The notes under the pieces were generated by a model, which worked only from the letters and a program-made list of their open reading frames with translations, did no database searches and was not told the origin of the DNA. The translations under genes were made by a program, and so were the position numbers. DNA of 32,381 nt from Clostridia bacterium (GTDB lineage: Bacteria; Bacillota; Clostridia; Oscillospirales; QAMX01), in contig JAFXIT010000020.1 in assembly GCA_017532825.1 (NCBI GenBank), forward strand, positions 1-32,381. The letters run 5' to 3'. Positions 10,414-26,865 of the stretch are shown here, one piece after another. Within the stretch, counting starts at the first letter, position 1, and the number at the start of each line of letters is the position of its first letter.

Positions 10414-10415
10414 CT

Positions 10416-12355: not shown

Positions 12356-13918
12356 ATGGAAAAGAAACTTGATGCGGCAGGGCTTTGGAGGCTCTACCGC
12401 AGGGGAGTAGACTCCCACTCACGTGAGCAGCTTTACGACCGCACCGCCCGTGCCTTCCGCTTTTTTGAGGGAGACCAGTGGCACGGCATAGAATCGGACG
12501 AGCAGCTTCCGACCTTAAACTTTATCCAGCCGACGGTCGAATACAAAACTGCAATGGTAGCCATGCAGAATCTTTCGATATATTACTCGCCGCTTGACCC
12601 CACGGCCTTTCCCGGCTCGGAGGAGGTCTGCCGCAGCCTCAACCTCTACGCCGCAAAGCAGTGGGAGCACAACAAGATGGACTCCCTGCTTTGGGATGCG
12701 GTAAGGGAGGCCTGCATTGCAGGGGACAGCTATCTGTTCTTTTACGACTCAAGACAGCACGCCCAGATAGTATCAAACACCTCCCTCTACCTTGCCGACG
12801 AGACCCAACGTGACATTCAAAAGCAGCGCTATATCATTATCGCCGAACGCCGCCCGATAGAGGAGGTCAGGCGTGAGGCAAGGGCAAACGGCATCAAAAA
12901 GGAGGATATCGACCTTATCCTTTCGGACGGAGATACCGATACCGTCGTCTCCAGCCGCAACGCCGACGATTCCTCGGCCGACGATATGTGCACCTGCATC
13001 CTCTATATGAGAAGGGGTGAGGACGGCTTTATATACTTTACAAGGTCGGTCCGAAACGTCATCTACCAGCCCGAGCAGTGCCTCAAGGGACTCAGACTCT
13101 ACCCGATAGCCTCCTTTGCCTGGCTTCCCAAGAAGGGCAGTGCCAGAGGTGTCGGCGAGGTCGTGCCGCTGATACAGAACCAGATAGAGGTCAACCGACT
13201 CCTTGCAAGAAGGCTCATCTCGGCAAAGCTCAACGCATTTGCAAAGCCGGTATACGTTGAAAATATGCTGGAAAATCCCGAGGATGCCGAAAACGTCGGC
13301 AGGGCCATACGCATAAAGACCGGCTCGGTACAGCGTGTAAACGATATATTTACCTACGTCTCTCCCGCGCCCATGAGCGGTGAGGCCGCCGCACTTCAAA
13401 ACGAGCTCATCTCAAAGACCCAGGAGCTTTCGGGTGCAGGCGATGCGGCACTGGGTATGATAAACCCCGAAAAGGCATCGGGTGCGGCAATACTTGCCGT
13501 GCAGGATCAGAGCGCCATACCCCTCAACGGACAGATCGCCGCCTACAAGCAGCTGGTGGAGGATATCGCCCTTGTGTGGTTTGATCTGCTGTGCGCCTAC
13601 CATACCGAGGGGCTTACCGTCGACAGAGCACTTCCCGAGGGCGGCACCGAGCGCACCGAGATAACCCCACTTGCCCTTGAGAGCCTCAAGGTGTCGGTCA
13701 GGATCGACGCCGCTCCGACAAATCCCTTCTCCCGCTACGCCCGTGAGCAGGCACTTTCAAACGCCCTTACGGCAGGGTATATAACCTTTGAGGAGTGGGT
13801 AAGCGCCATAGACACCGATGCCTCTGCTCCCAAGGCGGAGTTTGAGCGTATACTCGAAAACAGAAAAAGTGAGATCCCGTCTGCAGGGACGGTTATTGAT
13901 ACAACGGAGGAGATCTGA
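12356..13918 (+). CDS. Portal protein
   Basis: This 520-residue protein would form the dodecameric ring at the packaging vertex. The ATG at 12356 follows AAAGGAG (12342-12348). Its position between terminase and scaffold/coat is the portal slot. The sequence has the expected pattern: an N-terminal region with F-F-E-G-D-Q-W, an aromatic-rich alpha/beta core, a long helical stem region, and a C-terminal crown with S-G-A-A-I-L-A-V-Q-D-Q-S, a segment common in P22-like portals. No truncation is seen. The stop overlaps the start of the scaffold gene by one base, which indicates translational coupling. Confidence 0.85.
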   Translation: MEKKLDAAGLWRLYRRGVDSHSREQLYDRTARAFRFFEGDQWHGIESDEQLPTLNFIQPTVEYKTAMVAMQNLSIYYSPLDPTAFPGSEEVCRSLNLYAAKQWEHNKMDSLLWDAVREACIAGDSYLFFYDSRQHAQIVSNTSLYLADETQRDIQKQRYIIIAERRPIEEVRREARANGIKKEDIDLILSDGDTDTVVSSRNADDSSADDMCTCILYMRRGEDGFIYFTRSVRNVIYQPEQCLKGLRLYPIASFAWLPKKGSARGVGEVVPLIQNQIEVNRLLARRLISAKLNAFAKPVYVENMLENPEDAENVGRAIRIKTGSVQRVNDIFTYVSPAPMSGEAAALQNELISKTQELSGAGDAALGMINPEKASGAAILAVQDQSAIPLNGQIAAYKQLVEDIALVWFDLLCAYHTEGLTVDRALPEGGTERTEITPLALESLKVSVRIDAAPTNPFSRYAREQALSNALTAGYITFEEWVSAIDTDASAPKAEFERILENRKSEIPSAGTVIDTTEEI

Positions 13919-14475
13919 TGGAAGAAACAAACACCTTAAACGGGGTGGAGGGTGCTGTCGTGGGCACCGAAGGCTCCGGAAGTGACGGTAGCGAAGCCGC
14001 TTCGGCGTCCGACGCAAGGACGCAGCTTCCGGACAAGCAGACCGCCAAAGAAAATGCGGGCTTTGCCAGGCTGAGAAGGGAAAACGAGGCGTTGAACAGA
14101 CGTCTGGGCGACCTTACGGCATCTGCCCGAAGAAACGACGGCTACCGCCGTGCGGCATTCAAGGCGCAGTACGAAAGCGATATGCGCCAGATAAAGGAGG
14201 CTTTTCCCGACGAGAGTGCAAACGACGTTCAGGCTCTGGGGAAGGAATATGCACGCCTCCGTGCCGCAGGGATAGACAATCTTACGGCCTACGGTGCGGT
14301 AAGACTTCTCAGAAAGTCCGCACCGCCCGAGATAGGTGCCGTCGCCGACACCGCCGATGCGCGGGATTTCTACACCGGAGCGGAGCTTGACGCACTCAGC
14401 GAGCGTCAGCTTTCCGATCCGAAGGTACTTGAGCGAGCCATAAGATCGCTCGCAAGATTAAAGAAAGGAAGATAA
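13918..14475 (+). CDS. Putative scaffolding protein
   Basis: This 185-residue protein has a low-complexity, acidic, Ser/Gly/Ala-rich N-terminus (1-35), a charged coiled-coil segment (about 45-110) and a basic C-terminal end (L-A-R-L-K-K-G-R). That architecture and its place directly before the coat gene are characteristic of scaffold proteins of P22-like and other podoviruses, whose basic C-terminus docks on the coat. The start codon overlaps the portal stop, and GGAGGAG lies just upstream. Assignment rests on architecture and order, not on motif identity. Confidence 0.75.
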   Translation: MEETNTLNGVEGAVVGTEGSGSDGSEAASASDARTQLPDKQTAKENAGFARLRRENEALNRRLGDLTASARRNDGYRRAAFKAQYESDMRQIKEAFPDESANDVQALGKEYARLRAAGIDNLTAYGAVRLLRKSAPPEIGAVADTADARDFYTGAELDALSERQLSDPKVLERAIRSLARLKKGR

Positions 14476-14478
14476 ACT

Positions 14479-15300
14479 ATGTCCTACGAAAATTTTAAGC
14501 CCACTATCTGGAGCAAGCACATCGAACAGGAGCTCTCCAAGCTCACCGTTATGCAGGAGGACTGCAATACCAGCTTTCAGGGTGAGGTCGGCCCCGGTAA
14601 GACCGTAAAGATCATCGGCGCCGCCCGTCCCAGCGTCAACACCTACGTTCCCGGCCAGAACATCGAGGCCGCCGAGACCCCTGCCGATACCTCGGTATAT
14701 CTCTCGGTCGATCAGTACAAGTACACCCACTTCCTGGTCGATGACATCGACGCCGCACAGAGCGTTGACGGTATGATGCAGGCCTACATGAAGGGCTCTT
14801 CCGAGGAGCTTGCCGAGACCAGAGATAAGTTCCTTGCCGACCTTGCCGCACGCAACGGCTTTGCCTCCGCGTCTACCGCTATTGCTACCGATGACGACGC
14901 CAAGGCCGCCGTCGACGCCGCATTTACCTACCTCTGGAACAACGGCGTCAAGATCGGTGACGATATCTCCATCGTCCTGACTCCTTGGTTCTATTCCAAG
15001 TTCAAAAACTCCCTCTCGGCTCTCTGCACCGACAATATGGAGCTGATAAAGAAGGGTGTCGTGGGTATCTACAACGGTGCCACCGTCAAGATCTCCAACA
15101 ACCTCTATAACGACGGTACCGATGATTATATGCTGGTGCGTACCAAGAACGCCATCGCCTTTGCAGGCGGTATCAGCAAGACCGAGGCCTACCGCCCCGA
15201 TCTGCAGTTCTCCGACGCAGTCAGGGTCCTTGACACCTACGGCGCAAAGGTCGTCAGACAGGACGAGCTCTACGTCATCAAGGCCCACGCAAACGCCTAA
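14479..15300 (+). CDS. Major capsid protein (P22-like coat, HK97 fold)
   Basis: This 273-residue protein starts at ATG 14479, 3 bases after the scaffold stop, with AAAGGAAG as ribosome site. The N-terminal part (F-K-P-T-I-W-S-K-H-I, then K-I-I-G-A-A-R-P) and the middle D-D-I-D-A-A-Q segment resemble P22 gp5-type coat proteins. The central part has the Ala-rich helix of the HK97-fold P domain, and the C-terminus ends in E-A-Y-R-P and Y-V-I-K-A-H. It uses a markedly restricted set of codons, consistent with high expression. Length is normal for a small podoviral head. Confidence 0.88.
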   Translation: MSYENFKPTIWSKHIEQELSKLTVMQEDCNTSFQGEVGPGKTVKIIGAARPSVNTYVPGQNIEAAETPADTSVYLSVDQYKYTHFLVDDIDAAQSVDGMMQAYMKGSSEELAETRDKFLADLAARNGFASASTAIATDDDAKAAVDAAFTYLWNNGVKIGDDISIVLTPWFYSKFKNSLSALCTDNMELIKKGVVGIYNGATVKISNNLYNDGTDDYMLVRTKNAIAFAGGISKTEAYRPDLQFSDAVRVLDTYGAKVVRQDELYVIKAHANA

Positions 15301-15321
15301 TAACGAAAGGAGATATTTCAG

Positions 15322-15636
15322 ATGAATACCGTACTTAAAAGAAACGTACCCTCGGATATGCCCGAGATGACCGCCATAGTCGGCGAGTACTATCTCCCTG
15401 CCGCCGCTGACGACAAGATGCTCATCATCGTCAACGCTTCCGCCGCAGGCACCATTACCATTGTCAAGGGTGATGCAAAGTGGGGCGCAAAGGACGATCT
15501 TGACATCGTCTTTGAGGCCGCAGGCAGCAAGGCTCTCGCCGTTGAGAGCGCAAGATACGTTATCACCAAGGGTGATAACAGGGGAAAGATCAAGATCACC
15601 GGCAACGGCAGTGTCGGCTGCGTAGTTCTTCCCTAA
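15322..15636 (+). CDS. Putative head decoration or minor capsid protein
   Basis: This 104-residue protein lies directly after the coat gene, with AAAGGAGA upstream. It is predicted to be nearly all beta (alternating valine/isoleucine strands) with no cysteine-rich, membrane or coiled-coil features except one Cys near the end. Small all-beta proteins in this slot are commonly capsid-stabilising decoration proteins. I recognise no specific motif. A GC-rich hairpin follows the stop codon and may uncouple high-level coat and decoration mRNA from the tail genes. Confidence 0.55.
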   Translation: MNTVLKRNVPSDMPEMTAIVGEYYLPAAADDKMLIIVNASAAGTITIVKGDAKWGAKDDLDIVFEAAGSKALAVESARYVITKGDNRGKIKITGNGSVGCVVLP

Positions 15637-15644
15637 ACCCAAAA

Positions 15645-15676
15645 GACCCCTGCCCCCTTTAGTGGGGGCGGGGGTC
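15645..15676 (+). terminator. GC-rich stem-loop after the coat/decoration genes
   Basis: GACCCCTGCCCCC (15645-15657) pairs with GGGGGCGGGGGTC (15664-15676), with one G-U pair and a six-base loop. There is no T tract, so it is not a classical terminator. Its place after the most abundant structural genes suggests mRNA 3'-end protection or partial attenuation. The next ribosome site, AAAGGAG, starts a few bases later. Confidence 0.6.
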
Positions 15677-15696
15677 GGAGAAAGGAGATGCTTTAA

Positions 15697-16053
15697 ATGA
15701 CGGGAAGCGAAGTTTTTGCACAGACACTTTCCCTTATACAGGAGACCGACCCCTCTCCCTACGGAGTTCTTCCTCTTAATTGGCTGAACTTCGTTCTCGC
15801 CGAGACCTGGGAGGTCGCAAACAGACGCAGGGAGCAGAAGGGTCTTGAGCCCTTTGAAAAAATACCCGTGATGGGGGCTATGTCGGAGGAGATACCCTAC
15901 GACGACGAGCTTGTCCGCAGAACATTTCCCCTTGGACTGCTGGTACGTCTCTATACCGACGAGACCGACACACTTATGCTCGACCTTTACCGCAGGGAGT
16001 ACGCTTCGGCGGTAAATCTCTGCGACCGCGGCGTTGCGGTGTGGGAGGTTTGA
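15697..16053 (+). CDS. Putative head-tail connector (adaptor) protein
   Basis: This 118-residue, mostly alpha-helical protein has a tryptophan and aromatic-rich N-terminal half and a long C-terminal helix ending in R-G-V-A-V-W-E-V. Its size, helical nature and place between capsid and tail-nozzle genes fit gp4/gp11-like adaptors, which bind the bottom of the portal and seal the packaged DNA. No diagnostic motif is visible. The stop lies 2 bases before the next ATG, so the two genes are translationally coupled. Confidence 0.55.
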   Translation: MTGSEVFAQTLSLIQETDPSPYGVLPLNWLNFVLAETWEVANRRREQKGLEPFEKIPVMGAMSEEIPYDDELVRRTFPLGLLVRLYTDETDTLMLDLYRREYASAVNLCDRGVAVWEV

Positions 16054-16055
16054 GT

Positions 16056-17924
16056 ATGGAATACAATCCTCTCGTCCGCTCCGCACCCACCCCTCAAAGC
16101 ACCAGATACGTACGCTTTAAGGGGATAGACCTTTCCGCGGACCCTGCGCTTATCGATCCCGGCCGTTCACCCGATGCACCCAACCTCATATCCGACAGCG
16201 GCGGATATCCCGAGAAAAGACTCGGCTGGAGAAGCCTCTGCCGCTTTGAAAAGAGGATAAACGGTATCCACCGAGGGGTACTTACCTCCGGAGAGTACAT
16301 ATTGGTACACTCGGGTGACGGACTTTATTCCTATTGTGAGGGCAACGCCCTACTGTTGTGCGACGGCCTTAACGACGACCGCTCCTTTTCCTTCGTCGCA
16401 AGGGGGAGGATGTGGATACTTACCGGCAGAGAGTACCTCGTCTTTGACGGTGAAAGGGTAACGCCCGTGGCCGACATAGCCTACGCCCCCACGACGGTGC
16501 TTTCCTCGCCGCCCGAAGGCGGCGGGTACCCCTTTGAGGCGGTAAATCTGCTGACTCCGAGGAGAAAAAACAGCTTTCTCTCGGACGGGACGGCCACTAA
16601 ATACGTCCTTGACTGCGACGGGATCGACCTTGTGGAGTCGGTCAAGGTAAACGGGGAGGAGGTCGAGGGCTACACCGTCGACCTTGAAGAGGGCAGTATC
16701 ACCTTTGCCGATCCTCCCGAGGCTCCCGAGGTGACGGGGCAGGACAACCTGACCGTGACCTTTTCAAAGACGGTAGAGGGCTACTCCGAGGTCATCTCAA
16801 GATGCCGCTTTGCCGCTGCCTACGGCTTTGACAGCACCGAGGGCGAGCGGGTGTTCTTCTCGGGAAACCCCGATAAGCCAAACGTCGACTGGCACTGCGA
16901 GGCGCACGATCCCGACTACCTTTCCGACCCGGCATACGTGCCCGATACCTCGTTTGCCTACATAGGCGCCGACTCAAACCCCATAATGGGCTACCGACGT
17001 CTGGAGGGGTATATGGCAATAATCAAGGGTCAAAACGACCAGGACGCCACGGTATTTCTTCGCAGCTCGACGGTGGATGAGGACGGTGAGGCGGTCTTTC
17101 CCGTCATGCAGGGTGCGGCGGGCTACGGAGCGGTATCGCCCTATTCGATAGCCTCGCTGGGCGGTGAGCCGCTGTTTTTGTCACCCAGAGGTATAATCGG
17201 CATTGCCTCGGAGGACATAACCGACAGCTGTACCATGCAAAACCGATCCTTTTTTGCCGATGCGGGGCTCTGTGCCGAAAGGGATCTTTCCCAGGCCGTT
17301 GCCGCAGAGTGGGACGGCAGATACATCCTTGCGGTAAACGGCGGGGCCTATCTGCTTGACGGCAGACAGCAAAAGACCTACCTTGCAAGGAGCGGGGGAG
17401 ACTACGTCTATGAGTGCTTCCGCTTTGAAAATATTCCCGCACGGGTCCTCTGCGAGGCGGACGGTACCCTATATTTCGGCACCGAGGACGGCCGATTCTG
17501 CCGCTTCAATAACGACATCGTCGGCATGGAGCGCTTTTCGGACGACGGCGAGCCCATCGTTGCGAGATGGTCTACCAAGGCCGATGACGACGGGGATTTC
17601 GGAAGGTATAAGCAGCTGCTGCGGAGAGGCTGTGCGGTCATGCTCAAGCCCTATACACGCAGCTCTGTGAAGATATACCTGCGTACCGAAAGCGATTTCG
17701 GTGAGCTTGTGCGCTCGGAGATGATGGACATCTTCGACTTCAACGAGTTCGATTTCTCCCGCATATCCTTCAATACCTCCGATATGCCGCAGGTCTGCCC
17801 CGTAAACCGAAAGGTACGCCACTACATTACCCTCCAGATAACCGTCGAAAACGACAGTGTAAACGAGGGCTTCGGCGTTTACGGTATAGTAAAGCGCTAT
17901 ACCAAGGGGAGGTATGTAAAGTGA
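16056..17924 (+). CDS. Tail nozzle / DNA-stabilisation protein, beta-propeller type
   Basis: This 622-residue protein starts at ATG 16056 after GGAGGT (16044-16049); a longer in-frame start at 16041 lacks a ribosome site. Its N-terminus has the pattern R-S-P-D-A-P-N-L-I-S-D-x-G-G-Y-P-x-K-R-L-G-W, typical of podoviral tail-tube or nozzle proteins, where a short arm clamps the adaptor ring. The body is a series of beta-blades with repeated strands such as Y-I-L-V-H-S-G-D-G and Y-S-I-A-S-L-G-G-E-P-L-F-L. This resembles T7 gp12 or P22 gp10-like nozzles. It confirms a short-tailed particle, since no tape measure or sheath genes exist. Confidence 0.75.
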   Translation: MEYNPLVRSAPTPQSTRYVRFKGIDLSADPALIDPGRSPDAPNLISDSGGYPEKRLGWRSLCRFEKRINGIHRGVLTSGEYILVHSGDGLYSYCEGNALLLCDGLNDDRSFSFVARGRMWILTGREYLVFDGERVTPVADIAYAPTTVLSSPPEGGGYPFEAVNLLTPRRKNSFLSDGTATKYVLDCDGIDLVESVKVNGEEVEGYTVDLEEGSITFADPPEAPEVTGQDNLTVTFSKTVEGYSEVISRCRFAAAYGFDSTEGERVFFSGNPDKPNVDWHCEAHDPDYLSDPAYVPDTSFAYIGADSNPIMGYRRLEGYMAIIKGQNDQDATVFLRSSTVDEDGEAVFPVMQGAAGYGAVSPYSIASLGGEPLFLSPRGIIGIASEDITDSCTMQNRSFFADAGLCAERDLSQAVAAEWDGRYILAVNGGAYLLDGRQQKTYLARSGGDYVYECFRFENIPARVLCEADGTLYFGTEDGRFCRFNNDIVGMERFSDDGEPIVARWSTKADDDGDFGRYKQLLRRGCAVMLKPYTRSSVKIYLRTESDFGELVRSEMMDIFDFNEFDFSRISFNTSDMPQVCPVNRKVRHYITLQITVENDSVNEGFGVYGIVKRYTKGRYVK

Positions 17925-17952
17925 TATTTTTCATACGAAAGGAGATAAAACA

Positions 17953-18660
17953 ATGAGCATACGCGATCTCAAATTCTCTTCGGGAGATTTTTCGGGCAAG
18001 GACATATCCTCTCTGCCCGACCGTCCGCAGATATCCACCGCCGAGCTAAAGGCGAGGTTTGACAGCATCGGCAAGAGCATGCTTGCCCTTGGCAGCTTTA
18101 ACGGGCTTGTCGATGCGCTGACGGCAAATACCGGAGCAGGGGAGATAGGAACGACCTCGGGCAGAAGCCTACAGACCGAGCTGGATATGAAGGCGGTCAG
18201 ACATTCCCCCTCGTTTACGGGAATTCCCACCGCAGATACGCCACCCAGAGGCAGTGACACCACCCAGCTTGCCACAACGGCGTTTGTCAACCGAGCCCTC
18301 GGTGACGGCGGCTACGGCAATATGATGCGTGAGATATACGACTCGCAGGGCCGTGAATGCGACGTGTTTGCCTATGCCGACAGCAAGGCGACCGTGGAGC
18401 ACCATACCTTCACCCTCGGCACCGATTGGGAGGGAGTCGGTCCGTACACCTGCGATATAAGCCTTGAGGGTATAAGACAGGGCGACTGCCCGAAGGTCGA
18501 CGTCGTTCTTTCCGACGATGCCGAAACGGCGAAGGCCGAGATAGAGGCATACTCCAAGATCGGCAGGATGACGGTCGTCGGAGAGGGCGTGATAAGGGCC
18601 TACTGCTATGAGTCTACCCCCGGCACCGCCCTCACGATCCAGCTGGAGGTGGTCAGATAA
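17953..18660 (+). CDS. Tail fibre / appendage protein
   Basis: This 235-residue protein has an N-terminal helical anchor (about 1-65). A fibre-type repeat segment follows: S-P-S-F-T-G-I-P-T-A-D-T-P-P-R-G, then T-T-Q-L-A-T-T-A-F-V-N. This motif is widespread in phage tail fibres, where it precedes the receptor-binding or exchange domain. The C-terminal ~90 residues form a beta domain. AAAGGAG lies upstream. The stop overlaps the next start by one base, coupling it to the glycine-rich adhesin. Confidence 0.75.
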   Translation: MSIRDLKFSSGDFSGKDISSLPDRPQISTAELKARFDSIGKSMLALGSFNGLVDALTANTGAGEIGTTSGRSLQTELDMKAVRHSPSFTGIPTADTPPRGSDTTQLATTAFVNRALGDGGYGNMMREIYDSQGRECDVFAYADSKATVEHHTFTLGTDWEGVGPYTCDISLEGIRQGDCPKVDVVLSDDAETAKAEIEAYSKIGRMTVVGEGVIRAYCYESTPGTALTIQLEVVR

Positions 18661-19895
18661 TGGGTGATTGCTTTATCACAAGACGAGGCGGCGGTGGCGG
18701 AGGAAAGTTCCGCACCGAGATATACACCAAAAGCGGAAGCTGGATATGTCCCCCGGGCGTGAGAAAGGTAAACGTACGCCTTTTCGGAGGCGGCGGCAGT
18801 GCGGGAAGGGCTCTTTCCGACAGAGCAAGCTCGGTCTTCGGCGGAGGCGGCGGTGGAGGCGGCCATATGGCCTATGCATCGCTCGACGTCGAGCCGGGCA
18901 GGGAATATATCGTAACCGTCGGCGCAGGCGGTGCGGGCGTAGGTAACGTGACCTCGACGCCTATCAGCGAAAGCATTGCGGGAAACAGCGGCGGAGTTAC
19001 CTCGTTCGGGGATCTGCTTTCTGCCAGCGGCGGCTCGGGCGGTACCTCCGAGGGAGGCGACGGCGGCTCGGGCGGCGGCGGTTGGAAGGCAAACAGCAAC
19101 TATGCCGGTAAGGGCGGTAATGCAAGCTACGGCGGAGGCGGCGGTGGCGGCGGCTCGGGTGCGATAGGCACTACCGCGGCTACCGCAGGCGGTAACGGCG
19201 GCGACGGCGGCATCTACGGCGGCGGAGGCGGCGGTGGCGGTACCCACAGCACCGACGGAAGTATTTCCGGCGGCCTTGGCGGTGCAGGCGGCCAATACGG
19301 CGGCAACGGCGGCCGAGGTGACAACTACTACGAGTGGGAAAACGGCACCGGCTGTGCCGAGCCCGGCTCAAACGGTACCGACACCACCTCCGATCGCACT
19401 CTTGAATTCGTCGGCACCGGCCTTGGCGGTGAGATCGGCAGGAGAGAGGGCGCCTATTCGACATACGCAAACGGTGTCGGAGGGGGCGGAGGCGGTGGCT
19501 ACGGCGGCAACGGCGGAAGCAGCTGCGCAGTTTACAATATAACCCAGTCAAAGCAGTCCTCGGGCGGCGGTGGCGGAGGCGGTTACGGTGCTGACGGCGG
19601 CAAAGGCGGTCAGGCAAACCAGTATTCAAACTCCAACGGCGGCGGAGGCGGCGGAGGTGGCGGCGGCTACGGTGCTCCGGGCGGTGACGGCGGCTTTGGC
19701 GGAGGCGGCGGTGGCGGCTACGGCCTTGGCGGCCTCGGCGGAAGCTCCAACGCCGGCTTCTCGGTAAGCTCCTTTGTCGGCGGACGCAATCCCAACGGCG
19801 GCATAGCCGCAGGCGGTGCTGCAAGGTATATCGGTACCCAGTGGTTCTACGGCTCGGGCGGCGACGGCATCGTCATAATCCAGTACTACGAATAA
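18660..19895 (+). CDS. Glycine-rich tail-tip adhesin
   Basis: This 411-residue protein has an N-terminal beta motif T-K-S-G-S-W-I-C-P-P-G-V-R-K-V-N-V-R, the usual lead-in of glycine-rich phage and bacterial surface proteins. After it come more than 300 residues dominated by runs of four to nine glycines separated by short variable loops, ending in W-F-Y-G-S-G-G-D-G-I-V-I-I-Q-Y-Y-E. Such arrays can fold as polyglycine-II helix bundles, as in the receptor-binding tip of Salmonella phage S16. The loops would contact the receptor. The DNA is rich in GGCGGC repeats, so the large reading frames on the opposite strand here are artefacts. It probably determines which cells the particle binds (inference). 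Confidence 0.75.
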   Translation: MGDCFITRRGGGGGGKFRTEIYTKSGSWICPPGVRKVNVRLFGGGGSAGRALSDRASSVFGGGGGGGGHMAYASLDVEPGREYIVTVGAGGAGVGNVTSTPISESIAGNSGGVTSFGDLLSASGGSGGTSEGGDGGSGGGGWKANSNYAGKGGNASYGGGGGGGGSGAIGTTAATAGGNGGDGGIYGGGGGGGGTHSTDGSISGGLGGAGGQYGGNGGRGDNYYEWENGTGCAEPGSNGTDTTSDRTLEFVGTGLGGEIGRREGAYSTYANGVGGGGGGGYGGNGGSSCAVYNITQSKQSSGGGGGGGYGADGGKGGQANQYSNSNGGGGGGGGGGYGAPGGDGGFGGGGGGGYGLGGLGGSSNAGFSVSSFVGGRNPNGGIAAGGAARYIGTQWFYGSGGDGIVIIQYYE

Positions 19896-19906
19896 GGAGA
19901 AGGTCT

Positions 19907-20164
19907 ATGAAGATATTTCAGATACTCAACGGTGTCTGCCATTGGGACGCTACCAAGCTCCATCCCACGCTTAACAGCACCCTTGGCAGATATGCGGCAA
20001 ATATAGCCTTTGTCGAAGCGCCCGACTTCGTCTTTGAAGGCTGGGGCTACGACGCAAGTGCAGAGGGTGATGCCAGATTTATTCCTCCCGAGACTCCCAA
20101 AGGCTGGCTCTACGACGACCGAAGCGGTACCTTTTACCCTGAGTCGATGAATACGGAGGAATAA
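19907..20164 (+). CDS. Small protein linked to the fibre genes, function unknown
   Basis: This 85-residue protein starts at ATG 19907, supported by AAGGAGA at 19893-19899; an upstream in-frame start lacks such a site. It is rich in aromatic residues. The C-terminal part F-E-G-W-G-Y-D-A-S-A-E-G-D-A-R-F-I followed by G-W-L-Y-D-D resembles short proteins that follow fibre genes in clostridial phages, sometimes described as fibre-assembly or tail-accessory proteins. It has no signal peptide or membrane segment. Role is not established. Confidence 0.5.
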   Translation: MKIFQILNGVCHWDATKLHPTLNSTLGRYAANIAFVEAPDFVFEGWGYDASAEGDARFIPPETPKGWLYDDRSGTFYPESMNTEE

Positions 20165-20165
20165 T

Positions 20166-20474
20166 ATGGCAGAAACGGTGGTGACCTCGCTCAGTGCCGT
20201 TATCGTAGCGGCAGTGGGTGCTCTGACGGTCCTGCTTGAGTGCAAGGCCGACAGAGACCGCAAGCGCATAAGCGGTGAGGACAGAGACAGAAGCGAGCTG
20301 TTTTTACATATGGTACGCCAGCTTGACGCCCAGGGACGTCTTACCGAGATATGCGCCAAGCGCCTTGCGGGCATCGCCCTCAACGGCGACGTCGCCGCCG
20401 CTATGGAGTCGGCGCATGCGGCCCGTGAGTCGACAGAAGAGCTGGTACAAAAGGTAACCTCAAAGCATATATAA
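20166..20474 (+). CDS. Small single-span membrane protein in the lysis region
   Basis: This 102-residue protein has one N-terminal hydrophobic helix (about 8-25), then a highly charged, helical cytoplasmic or external tail with many Arg, Asp and Glu. It starts 1 base after the previous stop, with the upstream gene's end serving as leader. Position just before the holin suggests a second holin, antiholin or a virion-associated membrane protein. No motif decides between them. Confidence 0.5.
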   Translation: MAETVVTSLSAVIVAAVGALTVLLECKADRDRKRISGEDRDRSELFLHMVRQLDAQGRLTEICAKRLAGIALNGDVAAAMESAHAARESTEELVQKVTSKHI

Positions 20475-20480
20475 AAGGGG

Positions 20481-20780
20481 GTGAGGGATACGGAGATCAC
20501 AAAATACGTAAAGCCCGAGCTTATGATCCTTGCGGCGGTATGCTATATGCTCGGACTGCTTCTTAAGCGCTCGGATGGGGTCAAGGATAAGCTTATACCC
20601 CTTATTCTCGGCATATTTGCCGTGCTCTGCGCTACGCTCTACGTCTTCGGGTCAAGCAGGATCGCAAATCTTGCTCAGGCGCTTGACTGTATGTTTACGG
20701 GAGTGACCCAGGGAGTCCTGTGTGCGGGACTTGCCGTGTACGGGGATCAGCTGATCAAGCAATCGGGAAAGGATGAGTAA
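20481..20780 (+). CDS. Phage holin
   Basis: This 99-residue protein has three hydrophobic segments (about 14-28, 38-57 and 68-88) joined by short charged loops and a charged C-terminal tail. The pattern E-I-T-K-Y-V-K-P-E-L and the closing T-Q-G-V-L-C-A-G-L-A-V-Y-G-D-Q are familiar from holins of clostridial phages. It would form membrane lesions that release the endolysin encoded next. The likely start is GTG at 20481 next to a G-rich ribosome site; the first ATG lies 43 bases further in and would remove part of the first helix. It overlaps nothing essential and ends 1 base before the endolysin start. Confidence 0.8.
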   Translation: MRDTEITKYVKPELMILAAVCYMLGLLLKRSDGVKDKLIPLILGIFAVLCATLYVFGSSRIANLAQALDCMFTGVTQGVLCAGLAVYGDQLIKQSGKDE

Positions 20781-20781
20781 T

Positions 20782-21597
20782 ATGACTCTCGGCGCAGATA
20801 TTTCGGCCTGGCAGGAAAGGGTCGATTTTGAAAGGTTTAGGCAGGGCGGAAGAAGCTTCGTGATGATTCGTGCAGGTGCGGGGAACAAGCCCGACAGCCG
20901 CTTTGCGGAGCATTACGATGCGGCCATTGCCGCAGGTGTGGACGTGGGGGCGTACTGGTTTTCCTACGCCGCAGACACACAAGCCGCCCAGCAGGAGGCA
21001 GGGAGATGCATCGAGGTCCTTTCGGGAAGGCGTATAGTCTATCCCGTTGCCTTTGATTACGAGGCCGCAAGCGCCGAAGGCGGCCCTCTGCCGTCAAGGA
21101 AGGCGCTTACCGATATGGCCCTTGCCTTCTGCAGGGAGATAAGAGCGGCGGGATTTATCCCCGCAGTATATACAAACCCCGATTACCTTGCAAACCGCTA
21201 TGAGGCCGAAAGGCTTTCGGAGGTCGATCTGTGGCTTGCGGCCTGGGGACGGAGCGATCCGCCAACGGCTGATAACAGCGGCAGATGTGACATCTGGCAG
21301 TACGCCGTGGTCGGAAGCCGATCCGACGTGGAGGCGGGCAGGGCAAGCGCTTCGGGAGAGGTGGCGGGTATCGAGGGTGCGGCGGACGTAGATATATCTT
21401 ACCGTGACTATGCCGCAGAATATGCGGCAAGGGAAAGATGGAACCGCATCGAGGACCTGCCGAAGTACTACCGTGACGAGATAGCCGAGCTTGTAAGGGT
21501 CGGCGCACTTAAGGGCGGCAGCGGCGGACTTGACCTTTCGGAGGATATGGTGCGCTGTATGATCGTCGCAAAGCGGTATACCGATATCAAAGGATAG
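20782..21597 (+). CDS. GH25 endolysin (N-acetylmuramidase)
   Basis: This protein of about 271 residues is a GH25 lysozyme that cuts the MurNAc-GlcNAc bond of peptidoglycan. It opens with G-A-D-I-S-A-W-Q, the family's D-x-S-x-W start. The catalytic D-x-E appears as V-A-F-D-Y-E-A (about residue 90-96), and W-x-Y/F and Y-T-N-P motifs follow. The C-terminal ~45 residues (R-I-E-D-L-P-K-Y-Y-R-D-E-I through D-M-V-R) form a short helical module found on many clostridial lysins. I prefer ATG 20782 because AAAGGA sits 8 bases upstream; ATG 20773 is the alternative. It works with the holin for lysis. Confidence 0.92.
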   Translation: MTLGADISAWQERVDFERFRQGGRSFVMIRAGAGNKPDSRFAEHYDAAIAAGVDVGAYWFSYAADTQAAQQEAGRCIEVLSGRRIVYPVAFDYEAASAEGGPLPSRKALTDMALAFCREIRAAGFIPAVYTNPDYLANRYEAERLSEVDLWLAAWGRSDPPTADNSGRCDIWQYAVVGSRSDVEAGRASASGEVAGIEGAADVDISYRDYAAEYAARERWNRIEDLPKYYRDEIAELVRVGALKGGSGGLDLSEDMVRCMIVAKRYTDIKG

Positions 21598-21612
21598 GAA
21601 AGGATACAAAGG

Positions 21613-23064
21613 ATGTCAAAATATTTTACGACCACCTACATTGACCCTGAGGGCAGGGTGCATACCGGATACGTCAAGGACGGCAAGACCTATAAGGATG
21701 CCGAGCATACCAAGCGTATCGACCCGGGCACGGTGGTAAACACCCTTGGCGGAAGCTACATAATGACCGAAAACGGCGGTGTAAAGCTTTCCGAATACAA
21801 GGGAAATACAACTGCTGTCACCTCCGGCGGAGGTGAATATCTCAAAAACGCAAAAAGCGGTGCCATCGCGGCACAAAAGCGCAGAAACGAGGCGGCCATC
21901 GCCGAGCTGGAGGCGGGACGCTCGGGTATAAACGAAAGCTACGACGCTCTTGCAAGGGAGGCCTACGCCGCCTACCGCATGGGTAACGAAGGTCTTGCAA
22001 ACGGCCTTGCCGCATCGGGACTCTACCGCTCGGGCTATTCCGACACCCTCCGAGCCGAGGGTCTGAGCTCCTATCGTGAGGGTCTTTCCAGAACACAGCG
22101 TGAGCGTGTAAGCAAGCTTAACGAGCTTGACAGAGAGATAGCACGCACACGTGCCGAGGGTGAGAGCAGGCTTGGCGAGATAGAAAGCGAGTACGCTCTT
22201 GCGGAGCTTAAGCAGTACAACACCGAGCGTGACCTGAACTACAAGCTCTCCCGTGACGAGGTCGAGGATGCGAGATATGCCGAGGAGGCGGCCTATCAAA
22301 AGCAGAAGGATGCGGCCTCCGAGGCCCTTAAAAAGGCGACCGAGGCGGCAAAGTACGGTGATTACGGTCTTCTTGCCGACCTTGGCATCGACACGTCGGC
22401 CTATCAGGCCGAGAAGGAGGCCAAGGTGCGTTCCGAGCAGGAAGCTCAAGCCTGGTCGAGGGCGCTTGATGCCATGGCGGCGGGGGATACCTCACTTCTC
22501 AAGGCGCTCGGAGTAGATACCTCCGCATACGAGCGCAAGCGTGACTGGGCGGAGGCGATAGATGCGCTGTCGGTAGGGGATACCTCACTTCTGCAGGAGC
22601 TTGGGGTCGACACCTCCTACTACGACAAAAAGCTCTCGGACAAGCTTGCCTCCGAGGCCTATTCCGAGGCGGCGGGACTGTCGCCCCTTGAAATGGAAGA
22701 GGCTGTACAGTATGCAAAGAGCTTTGTTACAAGCCAGCTCGAAAGCGGAAACGGGTATGAATATATTACCGAACGCCTGCGGGTGATGGAAAGCGACGTC
22801 AGACGGATATTCGGAGACGGCTTCTGGGAGGTATACCTGGATACCTGTCTGTCCCTTCTGCCGGGAAGTCTTACCTACGTCGAGCCGAAGGCAGAGGAGG
22901 AGAGCTACAAAGGTCCGTCGCTGTATACCGCCAAGGAGTATTATATACTCTTTGACGATATGCTCAAGCACGGAAAGAGTCGAAAAGAGGTAGATGCTAT
23001 CCTCGACCAGACGGGCCTTTCCGAGCAGGAGAAAATCGAGATCAAAAATCTGCTTGTCGGCTAA
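21613..23064 (+). CDS. Coiled-coil repeat protein, putative virion or ejection protein
   Basis: This 483-residue protein is the last gene of the cassette. Residues ~1-75 are beta-rich, ~80-245 are long charged coiled coil, and there are three repeats centred on G-(I/V)-D-T-S at residues 258, 300 and 331. Each repeat is preceded by G-D-(T/Y)-x-L-L-x-x-L. A compact C-terminal helical domain follows. There is no signal peptide or membrane segment. In podoviruses, long helical proteins late in the structural block are often internal ejection proteins, but those usually precede the fibre and lysis genes. A role in DNA ejection is therefore only a guess. It is intact and has a normal ribosome site. 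Confidence 0.55.
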   Translation: MSKYFTTTYIDPEGRVHTGYVKDGKTYKDAEHTKRIDPGTVVNTLGGSYIMTENGGVKLSEYKGNTTAVTSGGGEYLKNAKSGAIAAQKRRNEAAIAELEAGRSGINESYDALAREAYAAYRMGNEGLANGLAASGLYRSGYSDTLRAEGLSSYREGLSRTQRERVSKLNELDREIARTRAEGESRLGEIESEYALAELKQYNTERDLNYKLSRDEVEDARYAEEAAYQKQKDAASEALKKATEAAKYGDYGLLADLGIDTSAYQAEKEAKVRSEQEAQAWSRALDAMAAGDTSLLKALGVDTSAYERKRDWAEAIDALSVGDTSLLQELGVDTSYYDKKLSDKLASEAYSEAAGLSPLEMEEAVQYAKSFVTSQLESGNGYEYITERLRVMESDVRRIFGDGFWEVYLDTCLSLLPGSLTYVEPKAEEESYKGPSLYTAKEYYILFDDMLKHGKSRKEVDAILDQTGLSEQEKIEIKNLLVG

Positions 23065-23071
23065 AATGGGC

Positions 23072-23100
23072 TTGCAACCGATGAAAAACTGTGGTATAAT
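23072..23100 (+). promoter_or_regulatory. Promoter of the serS T-box leader
   Basis: TTGCAA (23072-23077) and TATAAT (23095-23100) are separated by 17 bases. The -10 sits within a small dyad, CTGTG (23089-23093) and CACAG (23103-23107). The -35 begins 8 bases after the stop of the last phage-cassette gene, so the cassette has no terminator of its own before the T-box. Confidence 0.8.
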
Positions 23101-23109
23101 ATCACAGTT

Positions 23110-23323
23110 ATAATGACGTACGAGGGAGAATACGGCGAAAATGCTCCGTTCAGAGAGCCGACGGCAGGTGAGAGTCGGTCGGGGATATCGTCCTTCCGCC
23201 TCCCCAGTCATCGGTACACGCCCGGAGCGTGCATGCAAATGAGTGGTCGCTTATGCGGCAATTTGGGTGGCAACGCGGATATTATCCGTCCCATGGCTTT
23301 TCATGGGACGGTTATTTTATTTT
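23110..23323 (+). promoter_or_regulatory. T-box riboswitch controlling serS
   Basis: The leader contains the conserved T-box sequence at 23260-23278 (AATTTGGGTGGCAACGCGG). The bulge TGGC would pair with a tRNA 3' end GCCA, which matches the G discriminator of tRNA-Ser. A terminator follows: CCGTCCCATG (23286-23295), loop, CATGGGACGG (23302-23311) and a T-rich run. The base of stem I is GGGAG (23124-23128) with CTCCC (23200-23204). A TCC serine triplet at 23195-23197 is a plausible specifier. When uncharged tRNA-Ser binds, the antiterminator forms and serS is expressed. Confidence 0.93.
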
Positions 23324-23335
23324 GGAGGTATAACG

Positions 23336-24622
23336 ATGCTTGACATCAGATTCGTAAGAGAAAACCCCGAGATCGTAAAGCAGAATATCAAAAACAAATT
23401 TCAGGACAATAAGCTCCCCCTGGTCGACGAGGTCATCGAGCTTGACCGTGTCAGCCGTGAGGTAAAGCAGGAGGCAGACAACCTCCGTGCCCAGCGCAAC
23501 GCAAAGTCCAAGCTTATCGGCGGACTTATGGCAAAGGGCCAGCGTGACGAGGCCGAGGCCGTTAAGGCAGAGGTGGCGGCAAACTCCGCCAGGCTTGCCG
23601 CACTTGAAAAGGAAGAGGGCGAGCTTGAGGAGAAGATCCACGCCATCATGATGCGTATTCCCAACATCATCGACCCCTCGGTACCCATCGGCAGGGACGA
23701 TTCCGAGAACGTCGAGGTCAAGCGCTACGGCGAGCCCGCCCTGCCGGACTTCGAGGTGCCCTACCACACCGACATTATGGAGCGCTTCTGCGGTATAGAT
23801 CTTGACAGCGCAAGGCGTGTGGCAGGCAACGGCTTTTACTATCTCATGGGCGACATCGCAAGGCTTCATTCGGCCGTTATCTCCTATGCCCGTGACTTTA
23901 TGATAAACCGCGGATTTACCTATTGCGTACCGCCCTTTATGATCCGCAGTGAGGTCGTCACGGGTGTTATGAGCTTTGCCGAGATGGACGCCATGATGTA
24001 TAAGATCGAGGGAGAGGACCTCTACCTCATCGGAACAAGCGAGCATTCGATGATAGGCAAGTTTATCGACACCATCGTCCCCGAGGCCGAGCTTCCCTAT
24101 ACACTTACCAGCTATTCCCCCTGCTTCCGCAAGGAAAAGGGCGCTCACGGTCTGGAGGAGAGGGGCGTATACCGCATCCACCAGTTCGAAAAGCAGGAGA
24201 TGATAGTCCTCTGCCGTCCCGAAGAGAGCCCGATGTGGTTTGATAAGCTCTGGCAGAACACCGTCGATCTCTTCCGCAGCCTTGATATTCCCGTGCGTAC
24301 CCTTGAGTGCTGCTCGGGTGACCTGGCTGACCTCAAGGTCAAGTCGGTCGACGTAGAGGCCTGGTCCCCCAGACAAAAGAAATACTTTGAGGTCGGCTCC
24401 TGCTCCAACCTCGGCGAGGCTCAGGCACGCCGCCTCAAGATCCGTGTGGCAGGGGAGAAGGGCAAGTACTTTGCCCACACCCTCAACAACACCGTCGTCG
24501 CTCCTCCGAGAATGCTCATTGCATTCCTTGAAAACAACCTCCGTGCCGACGGCAGCGTTGCCATCCCCGAGGCTCTGCGCCCCTACATGGGCGGTATGAC
24601 CGAGCTCACCCCCAAAAAGTAA
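23336..24622 (+). CDS. serS: Serine-tRNA ligase
   Basis: This 428-residue class II synthetase charges tRNA-Ser. It starts at ATG 23336 after GGAGGT (23324-23329); the longer in-frame extension would read through the T-box terminator. The N-terminal M-L-D-I-R-F-V-R-E-N-P begins the long tRNA-binding coiled coil (to about residue 110). Motif 2 (C-F-R-K-E-K-G-A then R-I-H-Q-F), the T-S-E-H serine/adenylate loop and motif 3 (P-P-R-M-L-I-A-F-L-E-N) are present. The motif 2 loop E-K-G-A-H-G-L-E-E-R-G-V-Y is the form seen in a subset of clostridial SerRS. Length is normal. Controlled by the upstream T-box. Confidence 0.97.
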   Translation: MLDIRFVRENPEIVKQNIKNKFQDNKLPLVDEVIELDRVSREVKQEADNLRAQRNAKSKLIGGLMAKGQRDEAEAVKAEVAANSARLAALEKEEGELEEKIHAIMMRIPNIIDPSVPIGRDDSENVEVKRYGEPALPDFEVPYHTDIMERFCGIDLDSARRVAGNGFYYLMGDIARLHSAVISYARDFMINRGFTYCVPPFMIRSEVVTGVMSFAEMDAMMYKIEGEDLYLIGTSEHSMIGKFIDTIVPEAELPYTLTSYSPCFRKEKGAHGLEERGVYRIHQFEKQEMIVLCRPEESPMWFDKLWQNTVDLFRSLDIPVRTLECCSGDLADLKVKSVDVEAWSPRQKKYFEVGSCSNLGEAQARRLKIRVAGEKGKYFAHTLNNTVVAPPRMLIAFLENNLRADGSVAIPEALRPYMGGMTELTPKK

Positions 24623-24674
24623 AGAAAAAGTTTTTCCGATGATGCTATTAAGCTAAAGGTTTAACGGTAATTGA

Positions 24675-24716
24675 AAAAATAACCCACCTCGTTCAAAACG
24701 AGATGGGTTATTTTTA
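24675..24716. terminator. Bidirectional terminator after serS
   Basis: AAAAATAACCCA (24676-24687) pairs with TGGGTTATTTTT (24704-24715). An inner CTCGTT/ACGAG stem lies between, separated by one mismatch. T and A tails on both sides make it suitable for serS on the + strand and for the - strand gene ending at 24761. Confidence 0.9.
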
Positions 24717-24760
24717 ATGTAAATCTTGTTGTAAGAATGAGGAGCCAATGGATATTATAT

Positions 24761-25249
24761 CTACTTGATTTGCTCGGGGAAATAGACTCCTGCTTGCCTT
24801 AACATTTTGACGTAATTTGGGTCTTTTAATCTTTGTTCCGATTTTGAATATGCGGTATCTAACTCTCGTTGGGCTTTCTTCCTGTTTCGGAATGCAAAAA
24901 TAACGCAGCACAAATAAATACCGATTGAGACGATTGCACACGTGAGTGATACCCAACCTGCATAAGTGTCAAATGCTGTTTTATCATAAAAGAGGGGTAC
25001 TAAAAACATTACTCCCAACACCCCAAATGGAAAAAACATAGTCATAATACAATTGAAATTTGAAATTACAAATTTTTCCTTGGGAAAAAACGCGTGTTCT
25101 TTTATGTCTTTATCTACAAAAACTGTTCCACATTGAGAACACTTCAAAAACGGGCAACCATAGTGGTTGTACATGTGCTTTGTTAGTGTTGAATAACTCT
25201 CGTACATGTTTCCACACTTTGGACAATACTTGTGAGTGTGTGTGCTCAT
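24761..25249 (-). CDS. Membrane protein with an N-terminal C2H2-type zinc finger
   Basis: This protein has 162 residues if it starts at the second ATG (25249), preferred because AGGAG lies 8 bases upstream; the first ATG (25255) is only 2 bases from it. Residues C9, C12, H25 and H29 fit C-x2-C-x12-H-x3-H with Y16 and L22 in the core positions of a classic C2H2 finger. A second, degenerate unit has C37, C40, F44, I49 and H52. Two membrane helices follow (about 65-92 and 100-125), then a basic helical tail of about 35 residues, probably cytoplasmic. The gene and its flanks are far more AT-rich than the rest of the window, suggesting recent acquisition. Function is unknown; zinc binding is inference. 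Confidence 0.7.
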   Translation of the reverse strand: MSTHTHKYCPKCGNMYESYSTLTKHMYNHYGCPFLKCSQCGTVFVDKDIKEHAFFPKEKFVISNFNCIMTMFFPFGVLGVMFLVPLFYDKTAFDTYAGWVSLTCAIVSIGIYLCCVIFAFRNRKKAQRELDTAYSKSEQRLKDPNYVKMLRQAGVYFPEQIK

Positions 25250-25386
25250 TGACATCTCTCCTATTCTTCATTTAACCAAGTGTTGTTAAGCAAAACAGGG
25301 GGTGCGACTGGATATCGTTGTAATCGGTTTTTTATTCGACAGTGATATCCAAATTTAATATCGCTATTTCTACCATCTTGCACAAG

Positions 25387-25402
25387 CAATAACGAATTAT
25401 TG
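25387..25402. repeat. Small AT-rich inverted repeat downstream of the esterase gene
   Basis: CAATAA (25387-25392) and TTATTG (25397-25402) are exact inverse complements around CGAA. It follows the esterase stop codon on the minus strand and may be a weak terminator, though no T tract follows. The remainder of 25250-25413 is AT-rich and shows no convincing promoter hexamers or coding sequence. Confidence 0.35.
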
Positions 25403-25413
25403 TGTTGGAGCGG

Positions 25414-26739
25414 TCAGCTACAGGGGACCTCCCAGGGTATTTTATCCGAAACGTCGAAATATTCTGTATTGAAGTCGACCGAGGGCTCGATACCGTAAAA
25501 GACCCTGTCGGTGAAGGCGATGAGGTTGCGCCAGTCCTCGTCGGTCTGGGCGTGGTCGCCCTCACGTATCACCATTCCGCAGCTGTCCTCGGGACCGCCC
25601 AGGAATGCACATATTTTGTTAAGGACGGTAATATTTGTATAAGTGCCGAGAGGGTTTGCCCACAGATCGTTTTTTGCCTCGGTACAGAGTACGGGACGGG
25701 GTGCGATGCAGGCAAGGGCAAATATCATATCAACGGGGACACGCCTTACGTTGGAGCCCTTGCCAAAGGTGGCAAGCTCGGATGAAAACCAGCATCCGAG
25801 GTTCGAGATTATCGAGTTGAGGTCCTCGCTTCCGCTGCCCATGACGGTAAACGAGCCTGCGCCGCCGCAGCCCGAGCCGTTGGGTATGACCGCCGCAAAG
25901 CGCTCGTCCATCGCCGCGGCACAGATGGCCGCCTTTCCGTCACGTGAGTGGCCGGTTATGGCGACACGGGTGGGGTCTATCTGCGGCATATCTTCGATGT
26001 AGTCAAGGGCGACGATGGCACCAAAGGCCCATATACCGACCGCACCGAGGTCGTACTCGCCATAGGGAAGCTCGGATCTGTCATGCGGCTCGTCCGGACA
26101 GAGGTCCTTGCGGCTGACCGTTACGAAGATGTATTTTCCCTCAAGGAGCATCTCATCCTCCACCGCAGGGGCGTAATCCCTTTCGCAGAGGTAGTCAAGC
26201 CGCATCACGACCGGCAGAGCCTCCGCACCGACGGGGTAGGTGATGCGTATCTTCATCGAAAGTCCGTCGAAGGCGACGGTATGGTATTCGGTGACGGCTA
26301 TACCATCAAGGGTGTCCTCGGTCGTTTTTTCAACGAGCTCTATGCTTTCGGGATGGGGCGGCAGGTGGCCGTAGACGTAGTGCTGCATCAGCTCACGGAG
26401 ATAGGCCTTGTTTTCGTAAAACTCCTCGGGAGTTTCTACCCTGCTTCCGTCGAACCTGAGGAAGGGGTCACGCAGGTCGGTGTATCTTTCCATTTCCTTT
26501 ACCTCACGGTAGACGTATTTTCCGTCGACCACATCCTTTACGGGGGTGCGGTAGCTTTGGCTTTCGGTGGACGTCGTCTCGGGAGGGGGAGTAGTTGCAA
26601 CGGTGGTCGCGGCGGTAGTTGCGGCGGTGGTCGCGGCGGTGGTCGCCTCCGAGACTGCGGGAGAGCCCGAGGCGCAGGCAGAGGTAAATGCAAGCACTGC
26701 CGAAAGGATAAGGGGAGCGGGACGGACGGAAATCTTCAT
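25414..26739 (-). CDS. CE15-like alpha/beta-hydrolase lipoprotein (probable carbohydrate esterase)
   Basis: This 441-residue protein starts at ATG 26739, with GGAGGG upstream; a longer in-frame extension would precede the signal peptide. The signal ends in T-S-A-C, lipid Cys about 22. A Thr/Ala-rich linker (about 31-60) built from tandem repeats would pass through the cell wall. The catalytic domain has the nucleophile elbow G-H-S-R-D-G-K (263-269, Ser265) and the glycine-rich G-S-G-C-G-G-A-G segment seen in the CE15 glucuronoyl esterase family (usual elbow G-C-S-R-x-G-K). A late His in G-D-H-A-Q is a candidate for the triad. CE15 enzymes cut ester links between glucuronate and lignin or other esters. 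The Cys-to-His change at the elbow and the exact substrate leave the specificity open. Confidence 0.75.
   Translation of the reverse strand: MKISVRPAPLILSAVLAFTSACASGSPAVSEATTAATTAATTAATTVATTPPPETTSTESQSYRTPVKDVVDGKYVYREVKEMERYTDLRDPFLRFDGSRVETPEEFYENKAYLRELMQHYVYGHLPPHPESIELVEKTTEDTLDGIAVTEYHTVAFDGLSMKIRITYPVGAEALPVVMRLDYLCERDYAPAVEDEMLLEGKYIFVTVSRKDLCPDEPHDRSELPYGEYDLGAVGIWAFGAIVALDYIEDMPQIDPTRVAITGHSRDGKAAICAAAMDERFAAVIPNGSGCGGAGSFTVMGSGSEDLNSIISNLGCWFSSELATFGKGSNVRRVPVDMIFALACIAPRPVLCTEAKNDLWANPLGTYTNITVLNKICAFLGGPEDSCGMVIREGDHAQTDEDWRNLIAFTDRVFYGIEPSVDFNTEYFDVSDKIPWEVPCS
26598..26650. repeat. Tandem 12-base coding repeat in the esterase linker
   Basis: Units close to GCGGCGGTGGTC repeat about four times in tandem and encode Ala-Thr-Thr-Ala repeats of the wall-spanning linker. 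Such repeats can change copy number by slippage and alter linker length without shifting the frame, since the unit is a multiple of three. Confidence 0.7.
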
Positions 26740-26760
26740 AGAATATATACCCTCCAAAGT

Positions 26761-26772
26761 CGGAAGCTTCCG
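26761..26772. promoter_or_regulatory. Perfect 12-bp palindrome in the esterase leader
   Basis: CGGAAGCTTCCG is a perfect palindrome located 22 bases upstream of the esterase ATG, inside the ~120-base untranslated leader. It could be an operator for a dimeric repressor. No known consensus is recognised. Confidence 0.35.
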
Positions 26773-26865
26773 CACCTTACATCAAAAGGAAGAGACTCTG
26801 TCGCAGGGACGGTGCAAGAAGCGGATTTGGTTTTATTTTTTTGCGTGAAGTGACCCTGTATGGCT

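What the first reader, a model, noticed from the sequence alone, without database searches (positions are those of the whole stretch)
24720..25413. AT-rich island with a membrane protein carrying a classic C2H2 zinc finger
C9, C12, Y16, L22, H25 and H29 fit the full C2H2 consensus including hydrophobic core spacing, which is rare in bacteria outside Ros/MucR. Fusion to two membrane helices suggests zinc sensing, membrane-tethered DNA or RNA binding, or a defence role. Base composition differs sharply from both sides, and the gene lies close to the phage cassette.
Basis: partly seen in the sequence, partly recalled or inferred. Interest (0 to 1): 0.5.

Follow-up and report, generated by a model that had tools for sequence, protein, structure and literature searches.

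The report
Membrane zinc-ribbon protein, not C2H2 finger
A small bacterial membrane protein that looks at first like an animal-style zinc finger belongs to an uncharacterised family with an ordinary four-cysteine zinc ribbon, whose nearest relative sits in a virus-derived stretch of a bacterial genome and may help the cell keep out other viruses.

Summary
In detail: an AT-rich island (gene GC 0.37, window 0.55) encodes a 162-164 aa protein with two predicted membrane helices and C-x2-C-x12-H-x3-H spacing. I assembled 16 homologues. The Cys pairs C11/C14 and C39/C42 are invariant in 17 of 17. No homologue has C2H2 spacing. H27 lies in a 4-residue loop insertion found only in the window protein and its nearest relative, and that relative lacks H31. 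Without these two rows the family profile loses its strong C2H2 matches and 0 of 15 members match zf-C2H2. It is a Cys4 zinc ribbon on a two-helix hairpin with a conserved C-terminal motif, in an unnamed family. Three homologues lie inside prophage modules: two between repressor and integrase, one in a late operon. The window's closest relative is one of them. All three and the window copy are AT-rich for their loci. I infer a phage-carried accessory gene, perhaps superinfection exclusion; that function is untested. Twelve homologues are chromosomal, so a host role remains possible.

The parts
24761..25255 (-). Gene for the membrane zinc-ribbon protein (164 aa from 25255; 162 aa from the more likely start at 25249)
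   Evidence: start inferred from AGGAGAG at 25256-25262 and the aligned start of the G080 homologue
25214..25225 (-). First zinc knuckle, C11-P-K-C14
   Evidence: C11 and C14 invariant in 17 of 17 members
25130..25141 (-). Second zinc knuckle, C39-S-Q-C42
   Evidence: C39 and C42 invariant in 17 of 17 members
25163..25177 (-). Loop holding H27 and H31, the apparent C2H2 histidines; residues 27-30 are a lineage insertion
   Evidence: the insertion is in 2 of 17 members; no other member has both His
24890..25060 (-). Two predicted transmembrane helices (about residues 66-88 and 98-122) with a short outside loop
   Evidence: hydropathy peaks; helices in both models
24764..24889 (-). Basic C-terminal tail with the conserved ESxxRLxxxxYAxxLxxxGYxVPxxYL-type motif (S139, R142, Y148)
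   Evidence: S139, R142, Y148 invariant in 17 of 17; 11 K/R against 5 D/E after the second helix
24675..24715 (.). Inverted repeat with A- and T-runs outside it, probably a two-way terminator shared by serS (+) and this gene (-)
   Evidence: 19-nt arms, 95% complementary, 3-nt loop; terminator role inferred, not called by the scan
25256..25413 (-). AT-rich upstream region, probable place of the gene's own promoter
   Evidence: GC 0.38; the scan found no promoter-like site in this stretch and no excess over shuffles, so the promoter is inferred

Best explanation
The gene encodes a small membrane protein: an N-terminal Cys4 zinc ribbon, a two-helix membrane hairpin and a basic, conserved C-terminal tail, with both ends predicted inside the cell. 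Shown by sequence: the four Cys are the conserved metal-site residues and the two His are not conserved. Inferred: zinc is structural; the ribbon is a docking surface that, with the tail, binds a partner at the inner face of the membrane. The gene is a laterally acquired accessory gene of the kind temperate phages carry and express in the lysogen. Inferred further, and only about 25% likely: its benefit is superinfection exclusion, i.e. blocking another phage at the membrane. The confidence below is for the Cys4 membrane ribbon plus lateral, phage-type origin, not for exclusion.
For: C11, C14, C39, C42, P35, E53, S139, R142, Y148 invariant in 17 of 17 members; no homologue has C-x2-4-C-x11-13-H-x3-5-H. 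The other 15 members align end to end with the window+G080 pair, hhalign probability 99.5 over 155 columns. Removing those two rows drops the best C2H2 match in the PDB from E 1.7e-7 to 0.08, and Tim15 becomes the best match at a non-significant 0.06. Zn_ribbon_TFIIB matches 6 of 15 and zf-C2H2 0 of 15 at E 0.01. The 3-row model gives strands 6-10, 17-21, 36-38, 45-47. Phage link: G080 copy between an XRE-type repressor and a tyrosine integrase; G326 copy between a CI-like repressor and an integrase; G549 copy inside a phage late operon, antisense, between a large phage gene and holin-like/amidase genes. G080 is the window's nearest relative (41% identity; sister with support 91/77). Gene minus locus GC is -0.176 in the window and -0.141, -0.134, -0.106 in G080, G326, G549, against -0.078 to +0.051 in the other 13.
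Against: In the window the gene is separated from the phage cassette by serS; no integrase or repressor was recognised by eye, and no shared 11-mer was found between 9900-10900 and 23000-25800 that could be att sites. Twelve of 17 members are not beside phage genes, three of them in a conserved purN-gene-purH position. tblastn finds none in 50,697 phage records with three queries or 72,556 plasmids with one, and five completed scans of viral contigs gave no true member. The tree is mostly unresolved: 10 of 14 inner branches open. Single-sequence AlphaFold2 favours a C2H2-like helix.
Confidence: 0.6

Rival explanations
1. A host accessory or regulatory membrane protein of Clostridia, with the same Cys4 ribbon, whose phage-linked copies are incidental pick-ups. 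The ribbon and tail bind a host partner at the membrane.
For: 12 of 17 members are at chromosomal places without phage genes, including purN-gene-purH in G364, G848 and one G849 copy, and copies next to hisS (G842) and between a copper-ATPase-like gene and pyruvate kinase (G271) (neighbours named by eye). 9 of 71 genomes of one genus carry it (10 with a match, one weak partial match dropped).
Against: Sporadic: 1 of 21 genomes of the window's family, 1 of 18 of G080's and 1 of 58 of G549's. The window copy's nearest relative is in a lysogeny module, and its GC is far below its surroundings.
Confidence: 0.3
2. In this one lineage the ribbon has been remodelled into a true C2H2 finger (C11, C14, H27, H31), with C39/C42 left as a second half-site.
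For: Pfam zf-C2H2 over the whole-protein cut-off; single-sequence AlphaFold2 helix at 23-32; the 4-residue insertion makes the Cys-to-Cys period 28, like tandem C2H2 fingers (that period is recalled).
Against: C39 and C42 are kept in full; the nearest relative (41%) has the insertion and H27 but R at 31, and only 17.7 bits to zf-C2H2; the best single zf-C2H2 match in the window is under the cut-off; the alignment-based model shows no helix. Chance of the His positions given the loop is 0.4-1% per protein, not negligible after scanning a genome.
Confidence: 0.08
3. The ORF is not a gene, and the motif is a chance product of AT-rich intergenic DNA.
For: The motif pattern itself is at chance frequency in the genome (10 vs 8 in a control).
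Against: 16 homologues with end-to-end similarity, E 3.4e-33 for the best.
Confidence: 0.01

Closest known systems
Cys4 zinc-ribbon domains of the Zn_ribbon_TFIIB / zinc-ribbon type (Pfam PF13453, PF13240 and similar)
   Same: Two CxxC knuckles, short strands, structural metal site; Zn_ribbon_TFIIB is the Pfam model that most members match, 6 of 15
   Different: The matches are weak (best E 2.8e-5; cut-off bits are not listed in the alignment scan); here the ribbon is joined to a membrane hairpin and a conserved tail, for which no matching Pfam model was seen
Lysogeny-module superinfection-exclusion proteins such as Sie2009 of lactococcal phage Tuc2009 and Ltp of TP-J34
   Same: Small membrane-associated product, gene lying with repressor and integrase in prophages (here in G080 and G326); location described in PMC7693887 and PMC3952083 (passages read)
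   Different: No zinc ribbon is mentioned for them in the passages read; no sequence link was tested; the window copy is outside such a module; activity unknown
Eukaryotic-type C2H2 zinc finger (Pfam PF00096)
   Same: Window protein has C-x2-C-x12-H-x3-H
   Different: His pair absent from all 16 homologues; four conserved Cys instead
Ros/MucR bacterial zinc-finger regulators
   Same: Bacterial protein with a C2H2-like motif
   Different: Ros has a 9-residue spacer, three His and a DNA-binding domain of another fold (PMC9779718, passages read); here a 12-residue spacer, two membrane helices and a Cys4 site

Membership tests
Classical C2H2 zinc finger (PF00096) | C-x2-4-C-x12-H-x3-5-H in the protein | tested here: met
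   window protein 11-31; 26.4 bits whole protein vs cut-off 25.2, best single match 22.1
Classical C2H2 zinc finger (PF00096) | His ligands conserved among relatives | tested here: not met
   0 of 16 homologues have the spacing; H27 column 2 of 17 (window, G080), H31 column 2 of 17 (window, G326)
Classical C2H2 zinc finger (PF00096) | beta-beta-alpha fold | tested here: inconclusive
   helix 23-32 in the single-sequence model, none in the 3-row model; mean pLDDT about 65 in both
Cys4 zinc ribbon | two CxxC knuckles conserved | tested here: met
   four Cys in 17 of 17 members, with C-x4-C in the second knuckle of G364
Cys4 zinc ribbon | two beta-hairpins around one metal | tested here: inconclusive
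   four strands in the 3-row model; no significant fold match; metal not testable
Ros/MucR | 9-residue spacer and three His in the finger | tested here: not met
   spacer is 12 and there are two His (Ros features from PMC9779718, passages)
Superinfection-exclusion protein | gene in the lysogeny module between repressor and integrase | tested here: not met
   window copy lies between serS and an esterase-like gene; the feature is met by relatives G080 and G326 only
Superinfection-exclusion protein | membrane association | tested here: met
   predicted only: two hydrophobic helices
Superinfection-exclusion protein | blocks entry of other phages | not testable with these tools
   needs a plaque assay
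Known anti-phage defence family (PADLOC) | match to a PADLOC model | tested here: not met
   window protein 0 models at E 0.1; best of 8 members scanned E 0.031

The most novel reading that the evidence does not exclude
A new family of lysogen-expressed membrane zinc-ribbon exclusion proteins, picked up separately by unrelated temperate phages of Clostridia (between repressor and integrase in two, in a late operon in a third) and now and then left in the chromosome. In the window's lineage a 4-residue loop insertion has also created a C2H2-like metal site beside the ribbon.
Probability: 0.2. Interest if true: 0.5.

Novelty: new member of a known kind. Interest (0 to 1): 0.25.

Why it matters
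It removes a tempting but wrong case of a eukaryote-type C2H2 finger in a bacterial genome, and shows how a tandem-finger-like Cys spacing plus two stray His can pass a Pfam cut-off. It also points to an unnamed family of membrane zinc ribbons, some of them in prophage lysogeny modules, that can be tested for phage exclusion.

Tried and rejected
Close-homologue scans with the window protein alone found nothing in genome contigs, viral contigs, phages or plasmids; related proteins appeared only through whole-genome searches, profiles and a two-row alignment.

Rows dropped before counting the 17 members: L002 (chance match in the own genome), G113/L006 (no family-like reading), G764/L008 and G731/L009 (matches to the membrane part only), G100/L023 and G041/L024 (membrane part or tail only), G563/L028 (7 stops), G864/L045 and a second G857 match L047 (partial, lacking the ribbon; not translated), and viral contig L032 (30-residue match in a locus with no family member seen by eye). 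L025 is the same contig as G080's and was counted once. G849 has two copies, both counted.

Fold searches with the 3-row model gave no match at E 0.001. The empty-site idea failed: the six closest serS loci of the family have different neighbours and hold neither the island nor the phage cassette. No att-like repeat was found. A paper search combining zinc ribbon, transmembrane, prophage, moron and superinfection gave 37 papers; none of the 8 listed contained the words zinc ribbon. I do not claim that the family is absent from print.

Full report
What was checked. The window is a complete 32,381-base contig of a 1.83-Mb genome assembly. The gene is on the minus strand between serS (+) and an esterase-like gene (-). 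The GC drop is real: 0.372 in the gene, 0.312 and 0.380 in its two flanks, 0.563 and 0.576 in serS and the esterase-like gene.

Is it a C2H2 finger? Taken alone the protein passes Pfam's zf-C2H2 cut-off (26.4 against 25.2 bits), but two stretches are counted there; the best single match is 22.1 bits. In 117 genomes of the order no genome has a single match over the cut-off, and the window's is the best. The decisive test is homology. Whole-genome searches gave homologues in 394 genomes of the order (8 with a match, own included, of which 2 dropped), in 391 of the class (3 with a match, own included, of which 1 dropped), and in 71 genomes of one genus (10 with a match, of which 1 dropped); one more came from a genome-contig scan. 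After dropping partial matches there are 16 homologues plus the window protein. All 17 have C11, C14, C39 and C42. P35, E53, S139, R142 and Y148 are also invariant. The loop between the two Cys pairs is 20-22 residues in 15 members and 24 in the window protein and G080; the four extra residues begin with H27. G080 has H27 but R at position 31. G326 has a His in the H31 column but none at 27. No homologue has C2H2 spacing, even with relaxed gaps.

Controls. A profile of eight members that includes the window and G080 matches designed and natural C2H2 proteins in the PDB (best E 1.7e-7). A profile of the 15 other members does not (the same chain falls to 0.08; best is Tim15 at 0.06, also not significant). 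Pfam zf-C2H2 is not among the 19 families matched by these 15 at E 0.01, Zn_ribbon_TFIIB is matched by 6 of 15. Yet these 15 align along 155 columns with the window+G080 pair (hhalign probability 99.5), so this is one family and the ribbon is its shared form. At DNA level the motif occurs 10 times in the genome against 8 for the reversed pattern.

Structure. With a three-row alignment AlphaFold2 gives four short strands and no helix in the His loop, which is under pLDDT 50. With the single sequence it gives a helix at 23-32, as in a C2H2 finger. Both have mean pLDDT of about 65, so neither decides; I record the second as evidence against my reading. Fold searches were empty at E 0.001. Both models have long helices fitting the hydropathy peaks. 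Eleven K/R in the tail and one K/R in the short loop between the helices fit ends inside and loop outside (positive-inside rule, recalled).

Where the family lives. G080: XRE-type regulator, two small genes, the homologue, a second membrane-like gene, then a tyrosine integrase, all in one direction. G326: CI-like repressor, the homologue about 30 nt later, then an integrase. G549: the homologue lies antisense inside a phage late operon, with phage structural genes on one side and holin-like and amidase genes on the other (holin and amidase named by eye). G291: near an ImmA/IrrE-type protease, phage-like genes and a tRNA-Arg, but on the far side of the tRNA. The other 12 are at chromosomal places, three of them between purN-like and purH-like genes (neighbours named by eye). 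The window copy is about 1.7 kb from the last phage gene, with serS between. Its closest relative by tree is G080 (91/77), but most of the tree is open. The three phage-embedded copies and the window copy are the four with the largest GC deficit against their loci; part of G080's deficit is that its whole module is AT-rich (flanking kilobases 0.50 and 0.53).

How it most likely works. Shown: the family, its invariant residues, its predicted membrane hairpin and its places. Inferred: zinc held by the four Cys stabilises a small docking head; head and tail meet at the inner face of the membrane and bind a partner. For the phage-borne copies, the place beside a lysogeny repressor suggests expression in the lysogen, as for superinfection-exclusion genes, which in lactococcal phages lie between integrase and repressor and encode small membrane-associated proteins (PMC7693887, passages read; PMC3952083 for Ltp, passages read). 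That step is analogy only: I give it about 25%, and the window gene itself does not meet the location criterion. PdpSau of S. aureus prophages (PMC10127798, passages read) is another membrane-anchored prophage defence protein, without known kinship.

Known or new. In the scans made, only generic or weak Pfam, NCBIfam, PHROGs and PADLOC matches were seen; the matches over a listed cut-off are the window's two zf-C2H2 models and a second, C-terminal ribbon in the G549 member (Zn_Ribbon_1, 32.1 bits). The alignment scans list cut-offs only for their first member. The finding is a member of a known kind, a membrane-anchored zinc ribbon, in an uncharacterised family.

Noticed in passing
window 10559-23064: Phage morphogenesis cassette (large terminase, portal, major head protein, tail fibres, holin, endolysin) with no integrase, repressor or replication gene recognised by eye, ending about 270 bp before the serS start.
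   Followed up: partly
window 23336-24622: Seryl-tRNA synthetase: within the window's family of 21 genomes (own included) the best match is either 70-85% identical (6 genomes) or 31-36% identical (12 genomes), as if two deeply diverged types had been exchanged (2 genomes without a match).
   Followed up: no
window 212-5240: Two tandem, closely related 831- and 835-aa predicted lipoproteins with right-handed beta-helix-like repeats (seen by eye).
   Followed up: no
L013 4408-5157: The G549 homologue carries a second, C-terminal zinc ribbon (Zn_Ribbon_1, 32.1 bits) absent from the window protein.
   Followed up: partly
L053 8373-8909, L054 8869-9393, L011 8460-9182: In one genus the homologue sits repeatedly between purN-like and purH-like genes, while other genomes of that genus have it elsewhere or lack it.
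   Followed up: partly
window 25414-26775: Esterase-like secreted protein with a low-complexity Thr/Ala linker near its N-terminus (seen by eye).
   Followed up: no
L010 2768-3634: In the G080 lysogeny module the gene right after the homologue overlaps it by 4 bases and encodes another membrane-like protein with no PHROG match; possibly a partner.
   Followed up: no
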